In this document: piece by piece, positions 1 to 60,618 of the stretch | How the letters are laid out: each line of letters begins with the position of its first letter | Numbering within the stretch: the stretch's first letter is position 1 | The notes under the pieces: generated by a model | Seen by the model: only the letters and a program-made list of their open reading frames with translations | The model's database searches: none | What the model was told of the DNA's origin: nothing | Position numbers and translations under genes: made by a program | Assembly (NCBI RefSeq): GCF_000245755.1 | Contig: NZ_JH601088.1 | Span: 1,548,534 to 1,610,276 of the forward strand | DNA from: Helcococcus kunzii ATCC 51366 | GTDB taxonomy: Bacteria > Bacillota > Clostridia > Tissierellales > Peptoniphilaceae | Length of the DNA: 61,743 nt | Direction: 5' to 3'

Positions 1-252
1 CACTCAAAATTTTTGGTACTAAATCTTAAATTGTCGAATTCAGTACCATTCTCACTCAAAATTTTTGGTACTAAATTTTAAATTATTGAATTCAGTACCA
101 TTCTCACTTAAAACTATGGTGACCATATTTAATAATGTGCCATTCCCAACCCAGCATGACCAAATTAGCACTAAATATTTATTTTTAAAATTTGGTGCTA
201 GTTTGAACTGAATTTTTTAGCATCATATTTCTATTTCTAGGATTTGATGCTA
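1..252. repeat. Tandem hairpin array, 52-nt period (GGTACT and TAGCAC arms)
   Basis: Two units with GGTACT/AGTACC arms lie at 15-47 and 67-99, exactly 52 nt apart. Two units with TAGCAC(C/T)AAA-type arms lie at 166-200 and 218-252, again 52 nt apart. Between them is a perfect short palindrome, TATGGTGACCATA, at 115-127. Interiors are A/T-rich and similar between units, and arms pair within each unit. No coding potential is visible. The array sits downstream of the lplA terminator and may continue left of the window. Confidence 0.8.
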
Positions 253-10511: not shown

Positions 10512-10868
10512 TCATATTCCTTTTAAGTTTCTAACTAATAATATGATAACATAAAATGTAAATTTTGTATCTGTGTGTATTGGGGGAATGGGTGTTTTAG
10601 GGAAATATGTATATTGGGGGGAAATTAATATTTTGGGGGAATGGGAGTTTTGGGGAAAATAAGTAGTATGTGGGAATAGAAGTTTTGGGGAAATATGTAA
10701 TCTATAGGAATGGGCATTTTGAGGAAATATGTAATCTTTGCAAATAAGTGTTTTTGGGAAATGGATAGTTTGTGAGAATGGGTTTGGTTTTTCAGAGCAT
10801 AGTTTTAAGGTAATGGAATAGTTCGTAATACAAATGGTTAAGATATTATGTAGAACATGTGGGTGCAC
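10512..10868. repeat. G-rich imperfect tandem repeat, 17-18-nt monomer
   Basis: The plus strand repeats a GGAATGGGxxTTTTGGGG / GAAATATGTAATxTTT pattern. GGAATG-type anchors fall at 10585, 10638, 10673 and 10707 (steps 53, 35, 34), so the monomer is near 17.6 nt. A long minus-strand open frame here is only a translation of the repeat (proline/histidine-rich, no domain), so I do not call a gene. G-runs of 3-5 on the plus strand could form quadruplexes. Confidence 0.7.
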
Positions 10869-10925: not shown

Positions 10926-11224
10926 TATTGCCCGCGTATACCCCTCCCCGGTATCTTTTGGACCATAAATATTTTTTTTATGGTCTGTAAATACCCCACC
11001 CCAGTATTTTTTAGACCATACGATTTGAGGATATTATAAAAATTATGGTCCCTAGATACCCCTCCCCAGTATAATTGAGACCATAGTTTTACAAATTTAT
11101 ATAATACTTTCGGCTGAATCTTTTAAATCTATGGTCCATTTTATACCCCCCTGGAGTATTCTGAGACCATAAATTTCGTAAACATACTCCTTAATATACC
11201 CCCTAGGGGTATTTTGGGACCATA
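10926..11224. repeat. Tandem hairpin array with TATGGTC/GACCATA arms
   Basis: Right arms GACCATA occur at 10961, 11014, 11079, 11165 and 11218 (steps 53, 65, 86, 53). A complete unit, for example 10979-11020, is 42 nt, with TATGGTC and GACCATA arms and a C-rich centre such as ATACCCC...CCCAGTAT that can itself pair. The first copy lacks its left arm. The run of C in the centre is very unusual in this AT-rich DNA. Confidence 0.8.
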
Positions 11225-11375
11225 AATTCCCAGGATAAAATTATAGATAAACTATAAAAAAGTAATAATTTTATAAAAAATTGAAATATCAACATTTATT
11301 TAATTTTTTTATCTTTTTAACTGTTAAACCAATGCCTAATTTAATTTATCTCCCCGTACCAACAAATAGTGTCGG

Positions 11376-11457: not shown

Positions 11458-14400
11458 TTAAAATCTATTTCCTATTACAGCTCCGCTTTTATCAAATTCG
11501 TACCATTTTCCATCTATCCATTGTCGGCCAGTAACTCTTGTACCTGTACCAATTCTATAGAACTTCCATTTTCCATTGACTTTTTGCCAGCCAGTTGCCA
11601 TGGTTCCAGATTTTCTGAAAAATCTCCATGCTCCATTAATGAATTGTTCTCCTTTAACCATTGTGCCTGAAGATAATCTAAAGAAATAGATGTATCCATT
11701 TTCTGGATTTGTCCACCAACCCTTGTGATATTGTTTCATTGGTCCGGTTAAGGATAAGCATGAGAGACCATTCTTTGTGTAGATTTGGTCCATGCTATAT
11801 CCTTTGGAGTTAAAGTATTTCCAATTGAATTTTTCAGTTTCTTTACCATTCTTGTCAATTATTGGAGCCCACTTCCATTCTGAAATGGCTTGGTGTCCTG
11901 TATTTTTGTCTAAGAATTTCCAGTGACCATCAAAGAATTGCCATCCAAGTGCTAAGGTACCAGATTTTCTAAAGAACATCCAATCACCATCGATGAATTG
12001 TCTTCCTTTAACCATTGATCCAGAGTTTATTCTGAAGAAGTATTTGCTTCCTGTTTCTGGTCGTGTCCACCATCCACGGTGGTATTGGTTTGTTGGGCCA
12101 GCTACTGATAACCATGAGGAACCATTTTCTGTGTAGATTTGCGAAATATTATTTCCTTTGGCGTCGAAATATTTCCAATTGAATTTAGCTGTTGGGTTTC
12201 CTTCTTTATCAAGTATTGGTGCCCATCTCCATGAGGATTTTACTTGAGATCCGTCTTTGTCGTAATAGTTCCAGTAATCTCCATTTTGCACCCATCCAGC
12301 TTTTACTTCTGCAGGTTTATCTTTTACGATCAAAATTGTAGATAATGGAGCAATTTCTATTTCACCATTTTTAATTTCAACCTCTTCTATTCCTTCAGAT
12401 TTTGCAACTTGATCTCTTACAAGAACTTTATATTTTCCATTTTCCGCCGCAAATTTTTGAGCATTTCTTGCAGCATTATAGCCAATATAAATTTCATCTT
12501 TGTTGTAATCTAATTTATAGGCAACTAGTTGTTTTTCTGTTGCAATTTCCTTATAAACGGCATCAATTTCATCATAAGATTTTAAATCAAATACAGGATA
12601 TAATTTTCTAATCTTTACTAGTTCTCTGAAATATTCAACATTGTCTGCAAATTTTAGCGCTCTATCCCAATCAATTTGATTTACTGAATCTGGGGATTTG
12701 TATGAATTATGATCCCCACCTTTTGTTCGAGCAAATTCTTGGCCTGTATGTATAAATGGTGTCCCTTGAGAAAGTAGTACCATTGATGTGGCCATCTTGT
12801 GCATTTTCAGTCTTGTTTCATCACTATCATTTGGATTAGTTTCTAGTAATTTATCCCAAAGAGTTAGGTTGTCGTGCGCTTCGACATATTGAATGACTTG
12901 TCTTGCACTTGTGTAACCTTGAAGCCCTTTACCACCTTTTATATTTTGTAAAATGTAGTCTTCTTGATTTTGTTGTCCATTCACAAATCCTGGTTCTGCA
13001 CCATTAAATACGGAACCTTTTACTCCATCTCTAAAATTATCGCTGAAGTGAGCTATACCCTCTGGCATCTTATATGCATTCTTTTGAGTTGCTCTGATAT
13101 CCTCTGGAATGCCCATTCCCATGTTCCAGCCTTCACCTAAGATGAAGATATTTGGATTTATTTTTACTAATTCTTTATAAACTAGATTCATTGTTTCGAC
13201 ATCATGTGTCCCCATTAGGTCAAATCTGAATCCGTCAAATTTGTAGGTTTCAGCGAGATATGTGATTGAATCAATGATGAATTTTTGCATCATTTTTCTT
13301 TCTGAAGCAGTTTCATTTCCAACACCTGTACCACCTAAGAAATTGCCTTTAGCATCTTGTCTGAAATAGTAGCCTGGCACGATATAATCAAAGGAGTGTT
13401 GATCTACACCAGCAACGTGATTATATACAACGTCCATTATTACACCCATTCCATTTTGATGAATGGTGTCAATTGTCTTTTGTAATTCTTCTATTCTATT
13501 GAATGGATTTGCAGGATCCGTACTGTATGACCCCTCAATAGAGTTGTAATTTACAGGATCATAGCCCCAGTTAAATTGTGGCGTATCTAATTTTGTCTCG
13601 TCCACAGAATATTTACTATAGTCATAAATTGGTATCAATTGAATATGTGTAACACCAAGTGATTTGATATAGTCAAGTCCTGTAATTTGACCACTTGGCG
13701 ATTTCGTACCAAGTTCTGTCAAACCTAAGAATTTACCTTTATTCTTAATGCCACTATTTTCTGCAATTGATAAGTCTCTTATATGAAGTTCATAAATGAT
13801 TGGATTTGTAGCATCTTTTCCTGTCAATCTTGAAACATCTGAAGGTTTTGGATTTACCACAACTCCTCGTTGACCATTTATTGTAACAGATTTAGCGTAT
13901 GGGTCTACCACCCTATTTGTAACATCGTCAAAATGCACATCAAACATATACGCCTTACCCAGTTGGTCGCCTGGAAGTTTGTAATTATACACACCTTTTT
14001 CATTCGATTCCATTGGATAAGTTTTAAATCCTTCTTCATATAAATCATCAAATATAACTAAATCAACCTTATTCGCCGTAGGTGCCCAAATCTTAAATTC
14101 CGTACCTAACTTACTGTAAATTGCACCTAATTCTCCATCATATGCGTATTTTTTCTCAAATTCAGGAGTATCAAAAAGTCCAGCAATTCTTGAAGATTTT
14201 TCAAGTGGATAATCCGCCTTAACTCCATCATTATCATTTTGAGTAATAGTGAAGTTTATCTTTATACTTCCATTTATTGCTAAATCTTCCTTGAATTTAA
14301 CTAAAAATTCTGAACTAGCATTTTCATCACCTGACACTGGTGTGATTGATTCCACTTTGTCTTTGATACTATTTCCACCAAATGCAATATCATAGTCATC

Positions 14401-17400
14401 TAAAATATCCGTCAAAGCGACTTTTGTATTTAGAATGATATTAGCTTCCCTAAATGAATCGATGTTAAAGCCTTCAATTCTTGGTAGCATCACGCCATCG
14501 GTTGTAAATTCTTCTTTTCCTGATTCGATATATACATTTTGAGGATTCTTTGTAATATAGACAAATCTGTCACCATCAAAATTCTTGGCCCAGTCATTTT
14601 TGCCCTTTATTATAAATCCTATTTCTTCAACTTTTCCAGGGAATGTAATTTCCGCAATTTTTACATCTCCATCTTGTCTAGTAAATTCGTATTGCGCACC
14701 ATTACCATCTTTTGGCCATGCCCAAATCGCCCATTCCCCATTATCAGGGTCTTTGAAGTTAAATATTACAGTTGTACTTTCTGTTTGTGAAGGTAAAAAC
14801 ACTGCAGTACCACCGTCTTTATTCGCCGGAATGGTCACTGTAATTTTGCCATCTTCTGCTTCGAATTCCGCATCTTCATTAAATATATCTTTTAATGCAT
14901 CGCCCATTGCTGCATTCATTGGGAATGTTACACTCTTAGCCTCATTGCTTATATTCAACCCAACAATTACAGTTTCACCATTGAATGTTCTTGAGAAAAT
15001 TGAAACATTCTCATCTGTATAAAGTGATTTTCTGTCACCTCTAGCAAAGACTTCTGCATGTTCTTTTCTAATATTTGTTATCTTTTGATAGTGCTTTAAT
15101 ACATCATTATTTTCAACTTTTGACCAATCAAATGATTTTCTATTTTGATTTCCTGCATAAGGAGCGCTCATACCAATCTCTTCACCATAGTAAATGACTG
15201 GTTGACCTTTTGCTGTAATTTGCAGTGATGAAGCTACTTTTAGAAGGGATGCATTCCCACCTATTCTTGTCGCTAAAAATCCATCTTCATCATGAGAAGA
15301 TAAAAATGATCCAAAGTTCTTATCAAAAGTAATTTCCTTGTTTCTTTCCGCTAATCTTTTTTCTATATTAGCAATATCGCCTTTAACGAATTTTTCAGCC
15401 AATGACTTAAATTCAAAATCCAATAGTGAATCCATTTGTCCACCACCCAAATACCAACCAGTATTTCCTGTGGAGCCGCCATAAAATTCACCAATCATCT
15501 TAAAGTCAGGCTTAATCTCTACAAGTGCAGTTTTTAGTTCTTTCCAAGTATCATGTTCTACATGTTTTACAGTGTCAATTCTAAAATAGTCAATTGTATT
15601 ACCTTTGTCAGTTCTTAATGTATTTAACCATTCTGATTGCCACTTAACAAGCTTTTTACTAATCTCTGGGTTTTCCGTAATGAAATCTGGCAATCCAGAT
15701 AATTCTGAAGTTAAATCATCAGTACCTGGCTGAGTTCTATGCATTCCTTCAAATTGACCTTTATTTTTTGTTTCATATCCGGAATGGTTAAGAACAACGT
15801 CAACCATTAATTTTATGCCATTATCATGCAATGTGTCGATTAATTTCTTTAATGTATCGACATCACCAAGTCTTGGTTCAATCTTTGTAAAATCTTCCGC
15901 CCAATAGCCGTGATATCCGTAAGATTTGCCGTTTTGATTTAAATTGTTTTCAATATTATCCACAATCGGAGTAATCCAAACAGTTGTAATTCCAAGTTGT
16001 TTCAAATAGTCAACTTTATCTATTATTCCTTGGAAATCACCACCATGATAAGCGTCTATTTCAGAAGGATCATAAGAGCCATTCTTCGCAGGATCGTTAT
16101 TTGTACTATCACCATCAAAGAATCTATCTGTCAATAAGAAATAGATAATTTCTTCATCCCAAGCAATAGTATCTTTTGTATCGCTTGATGCCAAAGTATC
16201 AAGCTTAAGAGTAGTTTTGTGAGTTCCATTATATTCATCAACTAAAACTACATCAAAAGTCTTTTCTCCAGCCTTTAAATCAAGTGGTAATGCCACATTT
16301 TGTTTTAACAAATCTACTGGAACGCCAATTTTATTTTGTCCAAGATTTGTACCATCAATGTAAATTTCTTTTATCCCATGATTTTGAGGATTATCCACAT
16401 CAATTGTAACAACAAAAGATTCCCCCGCTTTAGCTTCCTTCATATTTAATGATGCGCTAATGCCAATATCAAGACTAACTAATCTTTGATATGATTCCCC
16501 ATCAATAGTGTTGGAAACATCTAATAATCCCGTTTTTGTCTCTCCATCCTTTGTAACATCAAAGGTATAGACATAATCAAATCCTTCTTCTGGATTTTCT
16601 AAAACATATCCGAAACGTTGATTTTCTGAGCTATATGTCATCTCAAATGAACCAAGCTCTTTCATTTCTTTTGTATCTACATTTCTCTTTGAAATATTGA
16701 TTTTCACTGAATCAATTGCATCCATTTTATCAGCTTCGTAAAGATCAATATCTCTATAATAGAAGGAAATATTTCCGTCTTTGTATTCTGGTCCTTTAAG
16801 ATATGGGACCACTCTAAACGCATCTTGACCTTGAGTTAAAAATACTTTTGTTGTAATTTCCAATGCGTTTGGATCTGTCTCAACAACTCTATCTAAATCT
16901 TTGTTTGGATCCTTTTCCGTCCATCGATTATCATCAGAAACACTCTTTCTTACGATAAATCCTACATTTGTTGCACCTTTTGAAATTGGTAAATCAAGTT
17001 TACCATTCACAAAATAATCTAAATCATTTAATGCCACTTTATCTGATGAATCCACCAAACCGGTTGACCAGTACCATAAATTCCAGCCGTCATAATCTTT
17101 CTCTGATCTATCATAATTGAATTGAATTTTTCTAGTTTTTGCAGGCTCTGAATCATCTCCAGGCTTAGAATAATACACATTTTCATCACCAGACACAACC
17201 CATGCCTCTACAGAAGTCTTTCCTTCAGGCACAGTAACCACTCTTGTCATTTCCTGACTATCCCAATTTTTAGGTCTAGAAATAACAGAAATTTCACTTA
17301 TTGGAAGTTCAAAAGTTGCCCTTGCATAGCCATCAACGTCTTCTGTAAATCTTTCTGCATAACCATTTAATCCATTTCCAAATACCCACATATCCCAATT

Positions 17401-18033
17401 CATTTGAGCATTATCTGCCCTCTTGTAATTAATAGTGTAGGTAAACATTGTAGATAAAATAGTTATTTCTTTTGTAGCCTTTTTACCATCAAACTCTGCT
17501 ACCAAACTGACTTTATCAGCTTTAGCATTTTCGCTAACAACTAACTTCCCATCTTCTATAGAAATACCATCCACAGCATTTTCTAAAGAATAAGTAGCTT
17601 TCACATCTTTAACACTTCCATCAGGATTCACATATTCTGCAGCCAAATCCAAACTACCGCCCAATTTAACCACAGACTCCGAATTTATCTTCAATCCCTC
17701 AACAATATATTCTAAATTTGGATCCGGCATCCATTTCCCATCAATAATAAATTTATATTGATACTTGCCTGGCTCCAATCTTTGCTGAGTCGTAAATAAA
17801 TAATTTTCTCCCTTTGTAAGTGAAATATTGGAAGTATTCCATTCATTCATCTCACCAGCTAAATTTACCGTTTTAGTATTTTCATTCCCTTGATAACTAA
17901 ATGTAGTTATCCCGTTTTCCGTCCTTGGAGCCAACTCCTCAGCACTCGCAGTTTCCATTCCCACCGGAATGAACCCAAGCAACATCGAAAATACCAAAAC
18001 TAAAGAAACAATCTTCTTAATACCTTTTCGCAT
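11458..18033 (-). CDS. Secreted amylopullulanase with two GH13 domains and C-terminal cell-wall-binding repeats
   Basis: The 2191-residue enzyme should degrade starch, glycogen and pullulan at the cell surface. Order: signal peptide (1-31); starch-binding CBM41/E-set-like segments (about 200-400; WNLWYWSTG and similar); first GH13 alpha-amylase-type domain (about 625-1080) with catalytic FRIDTVKH (about 816), GEFYG (about 844) and SSHDEDG (about 913); another CBM41-like segment (about 1085-1180); CBM48 (about 1300); and a pullulanase type I GH13 domain (about 1410-1850) with WGYDP, FRFDLMGTHD (about 1606), LGEGWNMG (about 1631) and VEAHDNLTLWDKL (about 1716). Residues 1909-2191 are Trp/Tyr/Gly-rich wall-binding repeats in two related blocks. 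No LPXTG is present, so attachment is non-covalent. A cre site overlaps its promoter. Confidence 0.93.
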   Translation of the reverse strand: MRKGIKKIVSLVLVFSMLLGFIPVGMETASAEELAPRTENGITTFSYQGNENTKTVNLAGEMNEWNTSNISLTKGENYLFTTQQRLEPGKYQYKFIIDGKWMPDPNLEYIVEGLKINSESVVKLGGSLDLAAEYVNPDGSVKDVKATYSLENAVDGISIEDGKLVVSENAKADKVSLVAEFDGKKATKEITILSTMFTYTINYKRADNAQMNWDMWVFGNGLNGYAERFTEDVDGYARATFELPISEISVISRPKNWDSQEMTRVVTVPEGKTSVEAWVVSGDENVYYSKPGDDSEPAKTRKIQFNYDRSEKDYDGWNLWYWSTGLVDSSDKVALNDLDYFVNGKLDLPISKGATNVGFIVRKSVSDDNRWTEKDPNKDLDRVVETDPNALEITTKVFLTQGQDAFRVVPYLKGPEYKDGNISFYYRDIDLYEADKMDAIDSVKINISKRNVDTKEMKELGSFEMTYSSENQRFGYVLENPEEGFDYVYTFDVTKDGETKTGLLDVSNTIDGESYQRLVSLDIGISASLNMKEAKAGESFVVTIDVDNPQNHGIKEIYIDGTNLGQNKIGVPVDLLKQNVALPLDLKAGEKTFDVVLVDEYNGTHKTTLKLDTLASSDTKDTIAWDEEIIYFLLTDRFFDGDSTNNDPAKNGSYDPSEIDAYHGGDFQGIIDKVDYLKQLGITTVWITPIVDNIENNLNQNGKSYGYHGYWAEDFTKIEPRLGDVDTLKKLIDTLHDNGIKLMVDVVLNHSGYETKNKGQFEGMHRTQPGTDDLTSELSGLPDFITENPEISKKLVKWQSEWLNTLRTDKGNTIDYFRIDTVKHVEHDTWKELKTALVEIKPDFKMIGEFYGGSTGNTGWYLGGGQMDSLLDFEFKSLAEKFVKGDIANIEKRLAERNKEITFDKNFGSFLSSHDEDGFLATRIGGNASLLKVASSLQITAKGQPVIYYGEEIGMSAPYAGNQNRKSFDWSKVENNDVLKHYQKITNIRKEHAEVFARGDRKSLYTDENVSIFSRTFNGETVIVGLNISNEAKSVTFPMNAAMGDALKDIFNEDAEFEAEDGKITVTIPANKDGGTAVFLPSQTESTTVIFNFKDPDNGEWAIWAWPKDGNGAQYEFTRQDGDVKIAEITFPGKVEEIGFIIKGKNDWAKNFDGDRFVYITKNPQNVYIESGKEEFTTDGVMLPRIEGFNIDSFREANIILNTKVALTDILDDYDIAFGGNSIKDKVESITPVSGDENASSEFLVKFKEDLAINGSIKINFTITQNDNDGVKADYPLEKSSRIAGLFDTPEFEKKYAYDGELGAIYSKLGTEFKIWAPTANKVDLVIFDDLYEEGFKTYPMESNEKGVYNYKLPGDQLGKAYMFDVHFDDVTNRVVDPYAKSVTINGQRGVVVNPKPSDVSRLTGKDATNPIIYELHIRDLSIAENSGIKNKGKFLGLTELGTKSPSGQITGLDYIKSLGVTHIQLIPIYDYSKYSVDETKLDTPQFNWGYDPVNYNSIEGSYSTDPANPFNRIEELQKTIDTIHQNGMGVIMDVVYNHVAGVDQHSFDYIVPGYYFRQDAKGNFLGGTGVGNETASERKMMQKFIIDSITYLAETYKFDGFRFDLMGTHDVETMNLVYKELVKINPNIFILGEGWNMGMGIPEDIRATQKNAYKMPEGIAHFSDNFRDGVKGSVFNGAEPGFVNGQQNQEDYILQNIKGGKGLQGYTSARQVIQYVEAHDNLTLWDKLLETNPNDSDETRLKMHKMATSMVLLSQGTPFIHTGQEFARTKGGDHNSYKSPDSVNQIDWDRALKFADNVEYFRELVKIRKLYPVFDLKSYDEIDAVYKEIATEKQLVAYKLDYNKDEIYIGYNAARNAQKFAAENGKYKVLVRDQVAKSEGIEEVEIKNGEIEIAPLSTILIVKDKPAEVKAGWVQNGDYWNYYDKDGSQVKSSWRWAPILDKEGNPTAKFNWKYFDAKGNNISQIYTENGSSWLSVAGPTNQYHRGWWTRPETGSKYFFRINSGSMVKGRQFIDGDWMFFRKSGTLALGWQFFDGHWKFLDKNTGHQAISEWKWAPIIDKNGKETEKFNWKYFNSKGYSMDQIYTKNGLSCLSLTGPMKQYHKGWWTNPENGYIYFFRLSSGTMVKGEQFINGAWRFFRKSGTMATGWQKVNGKWKFYRIGTGTRVTGRQWIDGKWYEFDKSGAVIGNRF

Positions 18034-18222: not shown

Positions 18223-18339
18223 GGAATGGGTTTGGTGGTATTGGTGACGTGGGGTTTGTGGGGAATGGTTTTTGGGGTATTGGTAATGCGGGGGTTTAGG
18301 GGAATGGATTTAGTGGTATTGGTGATGCGGGATTGGATT
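18223..18339. repeat. 39-bp G-rich direct repeat, three copies
   Basis: GGAATGG anchors at 18223, 18262 and 18301 give an exact 39-nt period. Each unit continues with TTT..GGTATTGGT(G/A)A(C/T)G(C/T)GGG. It lies in the gap between the amylopullulanase promoter and the next minus-strand gene (18105-18394), which holds no other feature that I can see. Confidence 0.75.
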
Positions 18340-18446: not shown

Positions 18447-18713
18447 CTACATACTATTTAATTTATTCTTAATTTCCCTATCAAGCAAATACAACATCTT
18501 AGGCCTATTGCCCATATACTTCCTTTGAATATATGGCTTAACAATCCCTTTATTTACAAGCTTATCAAACTTTTTACCAAAAATATATTTATTCGAAACT
18601 TCATTATATCTCCCAGATTCCTCGTCATAAAAATATTCCTTCAAAAGATCCAACTCCTCCTCTTGAAGCCTATAGAAAAAATACATCTTTAGTAACTTAT
18701 CATACTTCTTCAT
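18447..18713 (-). CDS. Small hypothetical protein, basic
   Basis: An 88-residue protein of unknown function, rich in Lys, Tyr and Glu. It has a helical N-terminus (KKYDKLLKMYFFYRLQEEEL) followed by a segment ending in NRPKMLYLLDREIKNKL that could be a winged-helix-like DNA-binding fold; this is only a guess from shape. ATG at 18713 has GGAGG five bases before it, and is preferred over the in-frame ATG at 18782, which has none. It is monocistronic with its own terminator. Confidence 0.6.
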   Translation of the reverse strand: MKKYDKLLKMYFFYRLQEEELDLLKEYFYDEESGRYNEVSNKYIFGKKFDKLVNKGIVKPYIQRKYMGNRPKMLYLLDREIKNKLNSM

Positions 18714-18887
18714 AACCCCCTCCATGATGCCAAGTATATCATTTATTAATGTTATATACCCGTACTCTCCATCTTTAAGCATAAATGTTAAATTTTTGTA
18801 TTAATAATGAAAGGTTTTATTTGGTATGAGGTTATATAATGGAGAGGAAGGGATTCAGCACTTGCCATTTTTAAAAACAGTTCGTTT

Positions 18888-19184
18888 TTATACACATTTT
18901 AAGGTATTTTAATTTTTATGTATAAATTATTTTTTCACGTATACACATTCTCTATAAAATAATTTTTTATGTATAAAGTTTTTATCGATTTTGTACACAT
19001 TAGTCTATCTAATATCAAAATGTGTATAAAATATATTTTTTTCATATACACAACTTCCGAAAATAATGATAAATATGTATAAATTTCGCGATTTTCTTAT
19101 ACATAAAATTTCAAAAATACATTCTATGTATAAATTATTTTTTATTTTATACATAAACTAAAGAATAAGTAACTATATGTATAA
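18888..19184. repeat. Tandem hairpin array with TTATACATA/TATGTATAA arms, 51-54-nt period
   Basis: Left arms TATACACA/TATACATA occur near 18889, 18940, 18992, 19043, 19097 and 19148. Right arms TATGTATAA-type occur near 18918, 18969, 19020, 19074, 19125 and 19176. Both series step by 51-54 nt. Interiors are A/T-rich, with ATTTTTT tracts. The last right arm supplies the ATG of an upstream in-frame start of the next gene and ends 23 nt before its real ATG. Confidence 0.8.
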
Positions 19185-19206
19185 ACTTTTTGATAAGGAG
19201 GAAAAT

Positions 19207-20025
19207 ATGACAAGAAAACAAAGTAAATTTTATAATGAAATAGAAACTTTGAAGACTTACAAGAAAAACATAGAAAGTAAACTAATAAAATTCCCAGAGG
19301 GTAGGCTAGGAATAAGAAATTCGGGAGGAAAGCCTAGATTCTTTCAAATAATAGGGAATAAAAAGTCAGGATTAACTGAGAAATACCTTTCCGAGAAGTA
19401 TTTTCCTCTCGCCAAGACTTTAGCGCAAAAGGAGTACTATTTCAAAGTCCTAAAATATATCGAGCAAAGGCTAAAAAATATAGAGAAGATAAATAAGTTA
19501 TCTGATAATGAAGACTTAATTGACATTTACAATAATCTAAGTCCTGTCCGAAAATCGTTAGTTACACCGATAGAGCCAACATGGGAGGAACAGGTAGATG
19601 CGTGGTATAAACAGAGTTATGAGAAACCAGATTCTAAATATGATAATCTAAAGCTTGCAACTAAGAATGGTGAGTTTGTGAGATCCAAGACGGAGAGATT
19701 TATGGCTGATTTTTTCTTTGATAATGGAATTAAATATAAATATGAAAAAATTATCTATTTAGATGGCTATGGACCAGCTTCTCCAGATTTTACTTTTATG
19801 TCACCATATACTAAAGAGGAAATTTATTGGGAACATTTTGGAATGGTTGATAATCCAGAATATGCCTTGAATATGGTAAAGAAAATTAATGCTTATCTAA
19901 TGAATGGTTATGTTATTGGTAAAAATTTAATTGTGACTTTTGAATCTTCTAAAGAAGTTCTCAATCTCAAAATTGTGAAGAGTTTGGTGAATGAACATTT
20001 AATTAAAGATGATAAGATAAAATAA
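19207..20025 (+). CDS. Hypothetical protein with PD-(D/E)XK nuclease-like segment
   Basis: The 272-residue protein has an N-terminal helical, basic half (LKTYKKNIESKLIKF...; KYIEQRLKNIEKI). Its C-terminal half contains SKTERFMADFF (Glu near 167), then PDFTF (about 196-200), then YWEHFG (about 213-218). This E...PD...ExH spacing resembles PD-(D/E)XK nucleases; the assignment is by motif only. The start at 19207 is chosen for the AAGGAGGA just before it; the earlier ATG at 19177 lies in the hairpin array. It stands alone with its own terminator, and no methylase is nearby. Confidence 0.7.
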   Translation: MTRKQSKFYNEIETLKTYKKNIESKLIKFPEGRLGIRNSGGKPRFFQIIGNKKSGLTEKYLSEKYFPLAKTLAQKEYYFKVLKYIEQRLKNIEKINKLSDNEDLIDIYNNLSPVRKSLVTPIEPTWEEQVDAWYKQSYEKPDSKYDNLKLATKNGEFVRSKTERFMADFFFDNGIKYKYEKIIYLDGYGPASPDFTFMSPYTKEEIYWEHFGMVDNPEYALNMVKKINAYLMNGYVIGKNLIVTFESSKEVLNLKIVKSLVNEHLIKDDKIK

Positions 20026-27439: not shown

Positions 27440-27740
27440 TATATGTCGGATGGGTTGGGGAGGAATGGGGATTGTGAGGAAAGTCGATTAAGGAGTAATG
27501 GAGATTACTGGAAATTATTTGAGGAGTAATGGGGAATTTTGGAATTTTGAGTGAGGGAGAATGGGAAGTGCTGGGAGCCAATTAAGGAGGAGTGGGAATT
27601 GCTGAGATTTTGAGCGAGGGAGAATGGGATTTGATAGGGCCGATTAATGAGGAATGAAAATTGGCGGGAAGAATGGGAAGTGTTGAGATGGACGATATAG
27701 GAGGAATGATTGTTGCTGAGATTTTTAAGCGTCAGAAATA
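27440..27740. repeat. G-rich imperfect tandem repeat, about 31-33-nt steps
   Basis: Plus-strand GGAG(A/T)AATGGG-type anchors recur near 27463, 27496, 27527, 27560, 27590, 27623, 27653 and 27672, interspersed with GAGATTTTGAG-type filler. No coding evidence. It lies right upstream of the long hairpin array, as G-rich tracts do at 10.6 kb and 52.7 kb. Confidence 0.6.
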
Positions 27741-27762
27741 GATTTTGCTGAGATTTGATGAG

Positions 27763-28467
27763 TTTTCCTGATTATTTTAAGAATTGCTATTTAGTCAGGA
27801 AAAGTTTTCGCTTGGTTTTCCTGATTATTTTAAGATTTGCCATTTAGTCAGGAAATTCATTCAATAATTTTTCCTGATTTTTTTGCGATTTGCATTTTAA
27901 TCAGGAAAATCGCCTGCTAGTTGTACCTGTTTATTTTAAGATTCCCGTTTTAATCAGGAAATTTACTTAAAATTCTTTCCTGTCTATTTTCAATTTAGCG
28001 ATTTTATCAGGAAATTCACCCCTCAACCCATCTTTACATGTGTATTTTAAGTTTTCACTTTACACATGTAAGGATTTTAACCATTTTACATGTCTATTTG
28101 CCTTTTCCCCATTTACACATGTAGATTTTTCAAAGGTCTACATGTCTATTTCTAATTTTCCATTTTACACATGTAAGATTTTTAACCATTTTACATGTCT
28201 ATCTGCCATTTACTCATTCACACATGTAATCGCAATGTTAACTTTACATGTCTATTCCTCATTTTCCCATTTACACATGTAATCGTCACAAATTTTATAC
28301 ATGTCTATTCCTCATTCATGTCTATTCCTCATTTTCCTATTTACACATGTAATGACAAAAATTTTATACATGTCTATTCGCCATTTCCCCATTTACACAT
28401 GTAATTGTCGCAAATTTTATACATGTCTATTCCCCATTTCCCCATTTACACATGTAAATGTGAATCT
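27763..28467. repeat. Composite hairpin array: CCTG-arm units then CATG-arm units, 52-53-nt period
   Basis: Five units with TTTTCCTG/CAGGAAAA arms (CCTG at 27767, 27820, 27873, 27926, 27979; step 53) are followed after 58 nt by eight units with TTACATGT/ACATGTAA arms (first at 28034; steps 52-53). All share the centre pattern T-x-TATTT...CCATTTA. A 17-bp tandem duplication at 28300-28333 makes one partial extra unit. The fourth CCTG unit has a variant left arm, TGTACCTG. Short open frames here are repeat translations. It lies 3' of the G5/CAP gene. Confidence 0.88.
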
Positions 28468-34100: not shown

Positions 34101-34886
34101 TTTTCCTGATTATTTAGGGATTTGCGATTTAGTCAGGAAAGGTTTTTGATGGGTTTTCCTGATTATTTCCAGATTTACGATTTAATCAGGAAAGATTTTA
34201 GGTGGATTTTCCTGATTATTTCCAGATTTACGATTTAGTCAGGAAAGATTTTTGTTGGATTTTCCTGATTATTTTGCGATTTGCGATTTAGTCAGGAAAA
34301 TCATTCAATATTTTTTCCTGTCTATTTTGGAAATTGCGATTTAATCAGGAAAAGCACCTGTAAGTTGTACCTGTTTATTTCCAAATACCCATTTTAATCA
34401 GGAAAATTGCTCAATATTTTTTCCTGTCTATTTCAGGTTTTGTGATTTAATCAGGAAAATTTTCACTTACTCCATTTTTACATGTGTATTTTAAAATATT
34501 TTATTTACACATGTAAGTATTTGGACCATTTTACATGTCTAATCGTCCTTTTCCCATTCACACATGTATATTTTTCAGACCTCTACATGTTTATTTTTGA
34601 TTTTTCATTTTACACATGTAAGATTTTGGACCATTTTACATGTGTAATTGCCATTATCTCAATTAAACATGTAATCACAACTTCGTCTTTACATGTGTAT
34701 TTTCAATTCCTTCATTTACACATGTAATTGTCACAATTTTTCTACATGTCTACTCTCCATTTTCCCATTTAGACATGTAATCACAAAAAATCTTTACATG
34801 CATATTTCTGTTTTCACTATTTACACATGTAATTTTCAATAATTTTCTACATGTCTAATTCCCATTTCCCCATTCACACATGTAAT
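34101..34886. repeat. Second composite hairpin array: seven CCTG-arm then eight CATG-arm units, 52-53-nt period
   Basis: CCTG anchors at 34105, 34158, 34211, 34264, 34317, 34370 and 34423 (all steps 53). After 58 nt come CATG anchors at 34481, 34534, 34586, 34639, 34692, 34745, 34797 and 34850 (steps 52-53). Arms are TTTTCCTG/CAGGAAAA, then TTACATGT/ACATGTAA. The order, the 58-nt junction and a variant TGTACCTG unit before the last CCTG unit all match the array at 27763-28467. It lies 3' of the backbone pilin gene. Confidence 0.88.
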
Positions 34887-52800: not shown

Positions 52801-52807
52801 TTTAGAA

Positions 52808-52893
52808 CAACACATTTTGTAAATATTGGCAGAATGTGTTGAATCCCATTCCCTCATGACAGCACAACTCTAGAAAATCATTAGAATGTGTTG
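52808..52893. repeat. Hairpin repeats with CAACACATT/AATGTGTTG arms
   Basis: A complete unit lies at 52808-52841; a second, with a degenerate left arm (CACAACT), ends with the same right arm at 52885-52893, exactly 52 nt after the first. A further copy of the same hairpin is at 60734-60769. Confidence 0.7.
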
Positions 52894-52942
52894 TCTTTTC
52901 AATCCCATATACATAAATTAACTGATTTAGTAAAATATGTAT

Positions 52943-52994
52943 AAAAAAAGGAGCTGTTAGGGTAATAACCAAAAAGTTATTTCCCTAGCAGCTC
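52943..52994 (-). terminator. Terminator of the NanA-like gene
   Basis: GAGCTGCTAGGG.AATAAC pairs with GTTATT.CCCTAACAGCTC on the minus strand, followed by seven T. Confidence 0.85.
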
Positions 52995-60430: not shown

Positions 60431-60618
60431 CAGCTTTTATTTCTAAATTAAATTTTATACTGAATGAAATTTTGTATTGTCAGCTTAAATTGGCTAAGTG
60501 TTGATCTGTGCTGAGCTTTTAGCGAAAAACCTCAGCTTTTTTCTAAGATTCTCAATTTATACTGATGTTTTTTTCAAAGTGACAGCTTTATCTGACAATT
60601 AGCTATTCTATACTGAGG
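60431..60618. repeat. Hairpin array with CAGCTT...CTGA arms, 50-52-nt period
   Basis: CAGCTT occurs at 60431, 60481, 60533 and 60583, and CTGA at 60460, 60511, 60562 and 60613. The steps are 50-52 and 51. Each unit spans about 33 nt with short pairing arms (TCAG/CTGA). The arms are weaker than in other arrays. 60619-60733 shows nothing else. Confidence 0.6.

What the first reader, a model, noticed from the sequence alone, without database searches (positions are those of the whole stretch)
27763..28467. Phased hairpin array whose arms switch from CCTG to CATG while the 53-nt period is kept
Thirteen hairpins follow one another at 52-53 nt. The first five pair TTTTCCTG with CAGGAAAA, the next eight TTACATGT with ACATGTAA. 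Both arms change together, while the centre (T-x-TATTT...CCATTTA) is kept. Arm covariation means that pairing, or binding of a two-fold symmetric protein, is selected. A step of 52.5 bp is five B-DNA turns, so every unit would face the same side. This is not CRISPR: spacers are related and arms are inverted. I know of no named repeat family with this design.
Basis: partly seen in the sequence, partly recalled or inferred. Interest (0 to 1): 0.9.

Follow-up and report, generated by a model that had tools for sequence, protein, structure and literature searches.

The report
Phased inverted half-site arrays between genes
In one bacterium's genome the DNA between genes carries about fifty arrays of short paired inverted motifs that recur every 51-53 bases, this being one of them; each motif type is likely read by its own DNA-binding protein, and the relatives searched lack the motif types that were tested.

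Summary
The array is real: 13 complete inverted-arm units in about 700 bp, five with CCTG/CAGG arms, then eight with CATG/CATG arms. Most steps are 52-53 nt, but the switch is a 58-nt step and one step is 70 nt. At least 26 such arrays exist in this genome, two in this window. All 19 with both arm types run CCTG then CATG with one switch. Six other arm classes form arrays at the same 51-53-nt step: about fifty arrays in all. Exact patterns: CATG arms in 0 of 249 other genomes of the order, CCTG and CTTG arms in 0 of 130 others of the family. Between classes both arms differ together (no CCTG/CATG hybrid). Within classes, 8 core changes are one-sided and none compensated, inner positions do not covary, and G-U bias is inconsistent. 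This speaks against a selected hairpin and for duplex half-sites read by symmetric proteins (inferred; no protein identified). New: array flanks are G-rich on the strand running inward from both sides. Closest known kinds: BIMEs, STAR and BOX elements; the BIME and STAR features tested were not met. Verdict: a new variant of bacterial interspersed composite repeats; mechanism open.

The parts
27763..28015 (.). CCTG/CAGG block, five units at 53-nt steps
28033..28458 (.). CATG/CATG block, eight complete units; reached by a 58-nt step (27975 to 28033); one 70-nt step with a 17-nt partial duplication at 28297-28333
27440..27762 (.). G-rich left shoulder with loose direct repeats about 31-32 nt apart
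   Evidence: (family D4), 76: 53 G to 9 C in the last 150 nt
34101..34459 (.). second array of the same family, CCTG block, seven units
34477..34886 (.). second array, CATG block, eight units; also reached by a 58-nt step
1..252 (.). array of another arm class (GGTACT.../...AGTACC, then TAGCAC/GTGCTA-like units), step about 52; continues upstream of the window
18886..19185 (.). array with TATACATA/TATGTATA-type arms, step 50-53
52807..52943 (.). short composite array, CAACACAT-type units followed by one TATACATA-type unit
60450..60616 (.). array with TCAG/CTGA arms, step about 51, read by eye
   Evidence: a like array at L109:7982

Best explanation
This is one of at least 26 dispersed intergenic copies of a composite repeat (CCTG-arm units, then CATG-arm units, about 53 bp apart) whose arms are likely duplex-DNA half-sites for sequence-specific, two-fold symmetric proteins that would pack side by side between genes. 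Shown: the copies, their order, the kept spacing, the arm classes, no CCTG/CATG hybrids, no compensation inside a class, intergenic placement, the flanking GC skew, and absence of the tested arms from relatives. Inferred: each arm class has its own dimeric binder; the near five-turn step would keep successive sites on one face, so that the array carries a nucleoprotein rod or loop anchor acting as a boundary or supercoil sink between transcription units, much as BIMEs are proposed to do. Both half-sites of a unit would have to fit one dimer, so a change of specificity would change both arms, while the DNA between them may drift as long as its length is kept.
For: At least 26 arrays, two-class order kept in 19 of 19 with one switch each, tied to unit polarity (19 of 19). 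Of 163 same-class steps 141 are 52 or 53 nt while loops and spacers share only 53-63% identity on average. No CCTG/CATG hybrid in 164 units anchored on the 5' arm and 222 anchored on the 3' arm; 8 one-sided core changes, none compensated. Inner pairs do not covary; G-T against A-C mismatches 34:17 in one class and 19:53 in the other, so no strand looks RNA-like. Mixed gene orientation, 6/12/5/3. Same step with six further arm classes. Rare step changes include one helical turn: 42 (3 cases), 63 (1) and a 10-nt longer gap in five CTTG arrays.
Against: No binding protein was identified and none could be tested. AA/TT steps show no 10.6-nt harmonic (p 0.36 and 0.35), while 13.25 and 8.8 nt (CCTG) and 26.5 nt (CATG) do stand out. 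Other odd steps (70, 81, 82, 58 at the switch) are not whole turns, and the repeated 10-nt changes may be inherited copies of few events. Absence from relatives and dispersal of whole arrays fit a parasite as well as a function. The arm change between classes is few evolutionary events, however many copies carry it.
Confidence: 0.45

Rival explanations
1. A selfish non-autonomous mobile repeat comparable to BOX elements: a modular element with variable module number, likely spread by an enzyme acting in trans that recognises the arms, with no use for the host.
For: Whole arrays are dispersed copies: the two window arrays align over query 1-695 of 705 nt at 79%, others over up to 554 nt at 78%. 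Confined to one genome among those searched. Unrelated flanking genes. One CTTG-class chain also on the 145-kb second contig. Pneumococcal BOX elements are modular, up to 637 bp, and judged parasitic (PMC3049150, passages).
Against: No shared ends or target duplications seen by eye at 26 arrays. No Y1 transposase (PF01797) in the genome; other transposase families were not searched. Spacing and arms are kept although loops have drifted far, and several arm classes share one step.
Confidence: 0.3
2. A transcribed structure: each array works as RNA, a row of hairpins that ends transcription or protects transcripts.
For: Folding energies are far below shuffles on both strands (z -6.3 to -8.9), as inverted repeats give. 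Some arrays (for example L043, L058, L060) lie just behind a hairpin followed by T-rich DNA, read by eye.
Against: Minimum-energy folds are mostly long-range, not rows of local hairpins. No consistent G-U bias and no compensation within classes. No fixed sense relative to genes. No Rfam match in the window. Terminator-like sites 1 against 0.9 expected, promoter-like 6 against 6.2.
Confidence: 0.08
3. No function: tandem duplication by slippage, with arms kept complementary by template-switch correction of quasi-palindromes during replication.
For: Units also multiply locally: 44 of 208 units have their nearest relative in the same array against about 5% expected from the pair counts; a 17-nt partial duplication in the window. 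Arms are complementary in every class.
Against: Correction should make arms agree after a mutation, yet 8 of 8 core changes are uncorrected and inner positions stay mismatched. It does not explain the kept length, the fixed block order or one step shared by several arm classes.
Confidence: 0.12

Closest known systems
BIME (bacterial interspersed mosaic elements, made of REPs)
   Same: Intergenic clusters of regularly spaced motifs in alternating orientation; reported to bind IHF, DNA gyrase and DNA polymerase I (PMC2817692, passages).
   Different: A REP is itself a 20-40-bp palindrome (PMC3733652, listing and passages); here the motif is an 8-12-nt half-site. REPs go with Y1 transposases (RAYTs); none found in this genome.
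STAR elements of Staphylococcus aureus
   Same: Intergenic, species-restricted, 14-bp motifs with 40-44-bp spacers, so a similar step; a distinct last ('anchor') spacer; function unknown (PMC3532100, passages).
   Different: GC-rich direct repeats; consensus absent from this window with up to 2 mismatches. No inverted arms reported in the passages seen ('inverted' occurs 0 times in the text).
BOX elements of Streptococcus pneumoniae
   Same: Composite modular design, 67-637 bp, tandem inner module of variable number, dispersed (PMC3049150, passages).
   Different: BOX has terminal inverted repeats and target duplications; no such ends were seen here, and each unit carries its own inverted arms.
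CRISPR arrays
   Same: Regular step and repeated units.
   Different: No invariant repeat with unrelated spacers; arms inverted, centres related; the two cas1 loci are not at arrays.

Membership tests
BIME/REP | regularly spaced motifs in alternating orientation, intergenic | tested here: met
   strict alternation along most runs; 26 arrays between ORFs by simple ORF calling, one (L045) grazing an 83-aa ORF
BIME/REP | each motif is a 20-40-bp palindrome | tested here: not met
   motif is an 8-12-nt arm; the palindrome needs two arms about 16-20 nt apart
BIME/REP | REP-associated Y1 transposase in the genome | tested here: not met
   PF01797: 0 matches in the own genome; control positive in 5 of 14 genomes. 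Not every REP genome need hold one
BIME/REP | GTAG or CGTC tag | not tested
   not searched for
STAR | consensus T(G/A/T)TGTTG(G/T)GGCCC(C/A) | tested here: not met
   0 in the window with up to 2 mismatches, 1.5 expected by chance; rest of genome not searched
BOX or other MITE | terminal inverted repeats and target-site duplication | tested here: inconclusive
   flanks of 26 arrays compared by eye, none seen; no empty sites available
BOX or other MITE | a full-length element in the genome that supplies the enzyme | not tested
   only PF01797 was searched
CRISPR | near-identical repeats with unrelated spacers next to cas genes | tested here: not met
   unit sequences; cas1 at 1237 and 1753 kb, more than 10 kb from the arrays found
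Known RNA family (Rfam) | match at gathering score | tested here: not met
   0 in the window
Protein-bound half-site lattice | a protein that binds the arms sequence-specifically | not testable with these tools
   needs protein experiments

The most novel reading that the evidence does not exclude
One bacterium runs a many-lettered DNA lattice system: seven or more classes of symmetric half-sites, each with its own binder, all laid out on one near five-turn ruler in about fifty intergenic arrays with inverted G-rich shoulders. Composite arrays (CCTG-CATG, TATACATA-CAACACAT) join two lattices end to end and form chromosome-wide boundaries whose specificities turn over so fast that no relative shares them.
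Probability: 0.22. Interest if true: 0.87.

Novelty: new variant of a known kind. Interest (0 to 1): 0.63.

Why it matters
Interspersed repeats are usually defined by sequence. Here a geometry (alternating inverted half-sites, 51-53-nt step, inverted GC-skew shoulders) is shared by arm classes of different sequence in one genome, which points to a constraint on layout itself. It makes a general question testable: whether bacterial intergenic arrays such as BIMEs and STAR elements are scaffolds for phased proteins or parasites. The many arm classes side by side are a natural series for altered-specificity binders.

Tried and rejected
Relatives: blastn of the array gave weak single hits in 3 of 20 other genomes; read they show no array and were dropped as chance. 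The one genome-contig hit (an alphaproteobacterial MAG) was taken as chance and not looked at. CAACACAT-type hairpins occur in 15 viral contigs, one place each; whether these are arrays was not checked.

Arm-blind scans of six relatives (G001, G002, G003, G005, G006, G008; about 1.08 Mb): with four or more hairpins, G003 gave 1 (shuffles 0, 1, 1), G001 2 (shuffles 0), G002 0. With matched arms and three or more units, G003 gave 4 (control periods 1-7), G001 4 (control periods 0-2), G002, G005, G006 and G008 0; one shuffle of each gave 0. The G001 and G003 hits have irregular steps or AT-rich arms and I treat them as chance, but weak arrays in G001 are not excluded.

Curvature by phased A-tracts: not supported. 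RNA folding, promoter and terminator scans: nothing specific. Ends or target duplications: none seen. Plasmid collection: no match. Inside arrays of the other classes the GC skew does not flip clearly (left half G over C in 11 of 17, right half C over G in 9 of 17).

Literature searches (listings only, and passages of four papers) returned no paper describing these arrays; most subscription journals are not covered. No call named the organism; the genus and family names in the search terms were guesses from memory. That REPs, BOX and STAR might be relevant was first recalled, then checked in those papers.

Full report
What is there. The window's array holds five CCTG/CAGG units and eight CATG/CATG units. 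Steps are 52-53 nt except 58 nt at the switch and one of 70 nt caused by a 17-nt partial duplication. A second array of the same family lies 6 kb away at 34101-34886, 15 units, with the same order and the same 58-nt switch; it aligns to the first over query 1-695 of 705 nt at 79%. The first array lies between a folC-like Mur-ligase gene and a gene with G5 and CAP domains; the second lies beside a pilin gene.

How common. The own genome (contigs of 1.95 Mb and 145 kb; window = C1:1548534-1610276) has at least 26 arrays of this family: 24 fetched loci and the two in the window, plus one single CATG unit at 503 kb. The blast search scored only 26 of 105 candidates, so this is a lower bound; but the 57 places of a CATG half-unit pattern and the 100 listed of 154 places of a CCTG unit pattern all fall in these loci, with 0 for the reversed patterns. 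By strict units 19 arrays hold both classes, 2 only CCTG and 5 only CATG; two of the one-class arrays (L045, L064) carry a decayed unit of the other class. The arrays lie between genes, by simple ORF calling; one grazes an 83-aa ORF. Gene orientation relative to the array is mixed: both along 6, both against 12, convergent 5, divergent 3. Of 48 flanking ORFs at 24 loci, 36 had a Pfam match at 1e-5; they are diverse (for example Rho, ribosomal protein S10, HU, SepF, MurJ, HPr kinase).

Order and polarity. All 19 two-class arrays run CCTG to CATG with one switch; the step at the switch is 56-59 in 13, 109-111 (one unit missed by the strict pattern) in 4, and 47-48 in 2. In that orientation the loops of both blocks are T-rich in 19 of 19, so the order is tied to unit polarity and is not an effect of how I turned the arrays.

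Constraint. Of 163 same-class steps, 141 are 52 or 53 and 7 more are near-multiples (105-107, 158). The rest are 29 (one, probably a false unit), 42 (3), 50 (1), 51 (3), 63, 70, 81, 82, 116, 195 and 274; two of these span masked bases. Mean identity outside the core arms is 0.63 (CCTG) and 0.55 (CATG) within arrays, 0.59 and 0.53 between arrays. Length is kept while sequence drifts. The nearest relative of a unit is in another array for 164 of 208 units and in the same array for 44; by the pair counts about 5% would be expected in the same array, so both dispersal and local duplication have happened.

Covariation, tested. The strict pattern fixes the four core bases, so their invariance is by construction. 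The test that anchors on one arm gives, from the 5' arm, CCTG with CAGG 99, CATG with CATG 61, neither 4; from the 3' arm 111, 103 and 8. No CCTG/CATG hybrid occurs. Of the 12 exceptions, 2 run into masked bases, 2 are truncated units and 8 are one-sided core changes; none is compensated. One search had counted the same with double counting and is superseded. Just inside the core, pair 10/32 is T-A 53, T-G 31, C-A 16, C-G 3 in 104 CCTG units and G-C 56, C-C 25, G-G 6 in 104 CATG units; pair 9/33 in CCTG units is A-T 75, T-T 24, A-A 4, T-A 1. Over pairs 2-12, G-T against A-C mismatches are 34:17 in CCTG and 19:53 in CATG units, so neither strand is consistently favoured as RNA. Between classes, three arm types share one frame: CCTG/CAGG, CATG/CATG and CTTG/CAAG, each with similar AT-rich centres. 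Pair 6/36 is C-G, A-T, T-A (by definition of the patterns), and pair 9/33 is mostly A-T, T-A, G-C. These are few events, however many copies carry them.

Other arm classes. Fifteen 20-kb samples of the chromosome, taken away from the known arrays, gave 6 further chains of four or more hairpins at steps 50-54, against 0 in each of three shuffles and 1-2 at each of six control periods. With matched arms and three or more units they gave 8 chains, against 0-2 at five control periods. Whole-genome patterns then located CTTG arms at 11 places, CAACACAT at 8 and TATACATA at 8, with 0 for reversed patterns. TATACATA and CAACACAT blocks are adjacent at six places (28, 60, 647, 654, 1302 and 1601 kb): a second composite array with an arm switch. 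Three more classes, CGATGATA, GGTACT and TCAG, were seen at two places each in the sampled sequence, the last partly by eye. Half-sites alternate in orientation along most runs (one mismatch allowed, so some chance hits are mixed in). My sum is about fifty arrays (26 + about 11 + about 9 + 6), a lower bound for the classes that were only sampled. One CTTG chain lies on the smaller contig.

Flanks. The strand running into the array is G-rich from both sides. GC skew in the first 50 nt is +0.37 (52 flanks, 42 with G over C) for CCTG/CATG arrays and +0.31 (34 flanks, 28) for 17 arrays of other classes, fading to about zero by 250-300 nt; 114 flanks of array-free intergenic midpoints give 0.00 (49 with G over C). 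It holds at gene 3' and 5' ends alike (0.31 and 0.21; 0.29 and 0.16). CCTG loops are G-rich (276:187) and CATG loops C-rich (118:343), but arrays of the other classes show no clear flip inside. I have no tested explanation; the shoulders may belong to the element or be the trace of a strand-specific mutational process.

Spread. CATG pattern: 1 of 250 genomes of the order, the own one, and one probably chance hit in the collection of 84,980 species, which may leave out the own genome. CCTG and CTTG patterns: 1 of 131 genomes of the family each, the own one. The other arm classes were not searched by pattern in relatives. Viral contigs: 0, 0, 0 for CATG, CCTG and CTTG; 15 contigs with one CAACACAT hairpin each. 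The nearest relatives held are distant (folC 56-58% identical), so the age of the system cannot be told.

Mechanism. The best reading is duplex half-sites for symmetric sequence-specific proteins on a helical ruler; the binder, the phasing and the boundary role are inferred. The chief rival is a BOX-like parasite, and both can be true, since parasites can be built of binding sites. Pairing as RNA or cruciform is disfavoured by the lack of compensation within classes, but arms are complementary in every class, so structure cannot be excluded outright.

Noticed in passing
flanks of 43 arrays, e.g. window 27440-27762: Inverted GC-skew shoulders: the strand running into an array is G-rich from both sides for about 200 nt, in every arm class pooled, and not at array-free intergenic midpoints.
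   Followed up: partly
window 10978-11230: Inverted TATGGTC/GACCATA repeats around an ATACCCC...GGGGTAT-like centre, several copies at looser steps: perhaps a further arm class.
   Followed up: no
window 10618-10762, 18223-18331, 27440-27760: G-rich direct repeats with steps of about 34, 39 and 31-32 nt, the last next to the array.
   Followed up: no
right flanks of arrays at L041, L050, L059; L105 about 12860-12890: Another dispersed palindrome of the type GTCTTCAGACGATG...GCATCGCCTGA recurs near arrays.
   Followed up: no
window 19177-20025 (+) and 18447-18782 (-): Two ORFs without Pfam match flank the TATACATA-type array; a candidate place to look for a cognate protein.
   Followed up: no
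window 11458-18033 (-): 2191-aa protein with alpha-amylase, pullulanase-associated and choline-binding domains.
   Followed up: no
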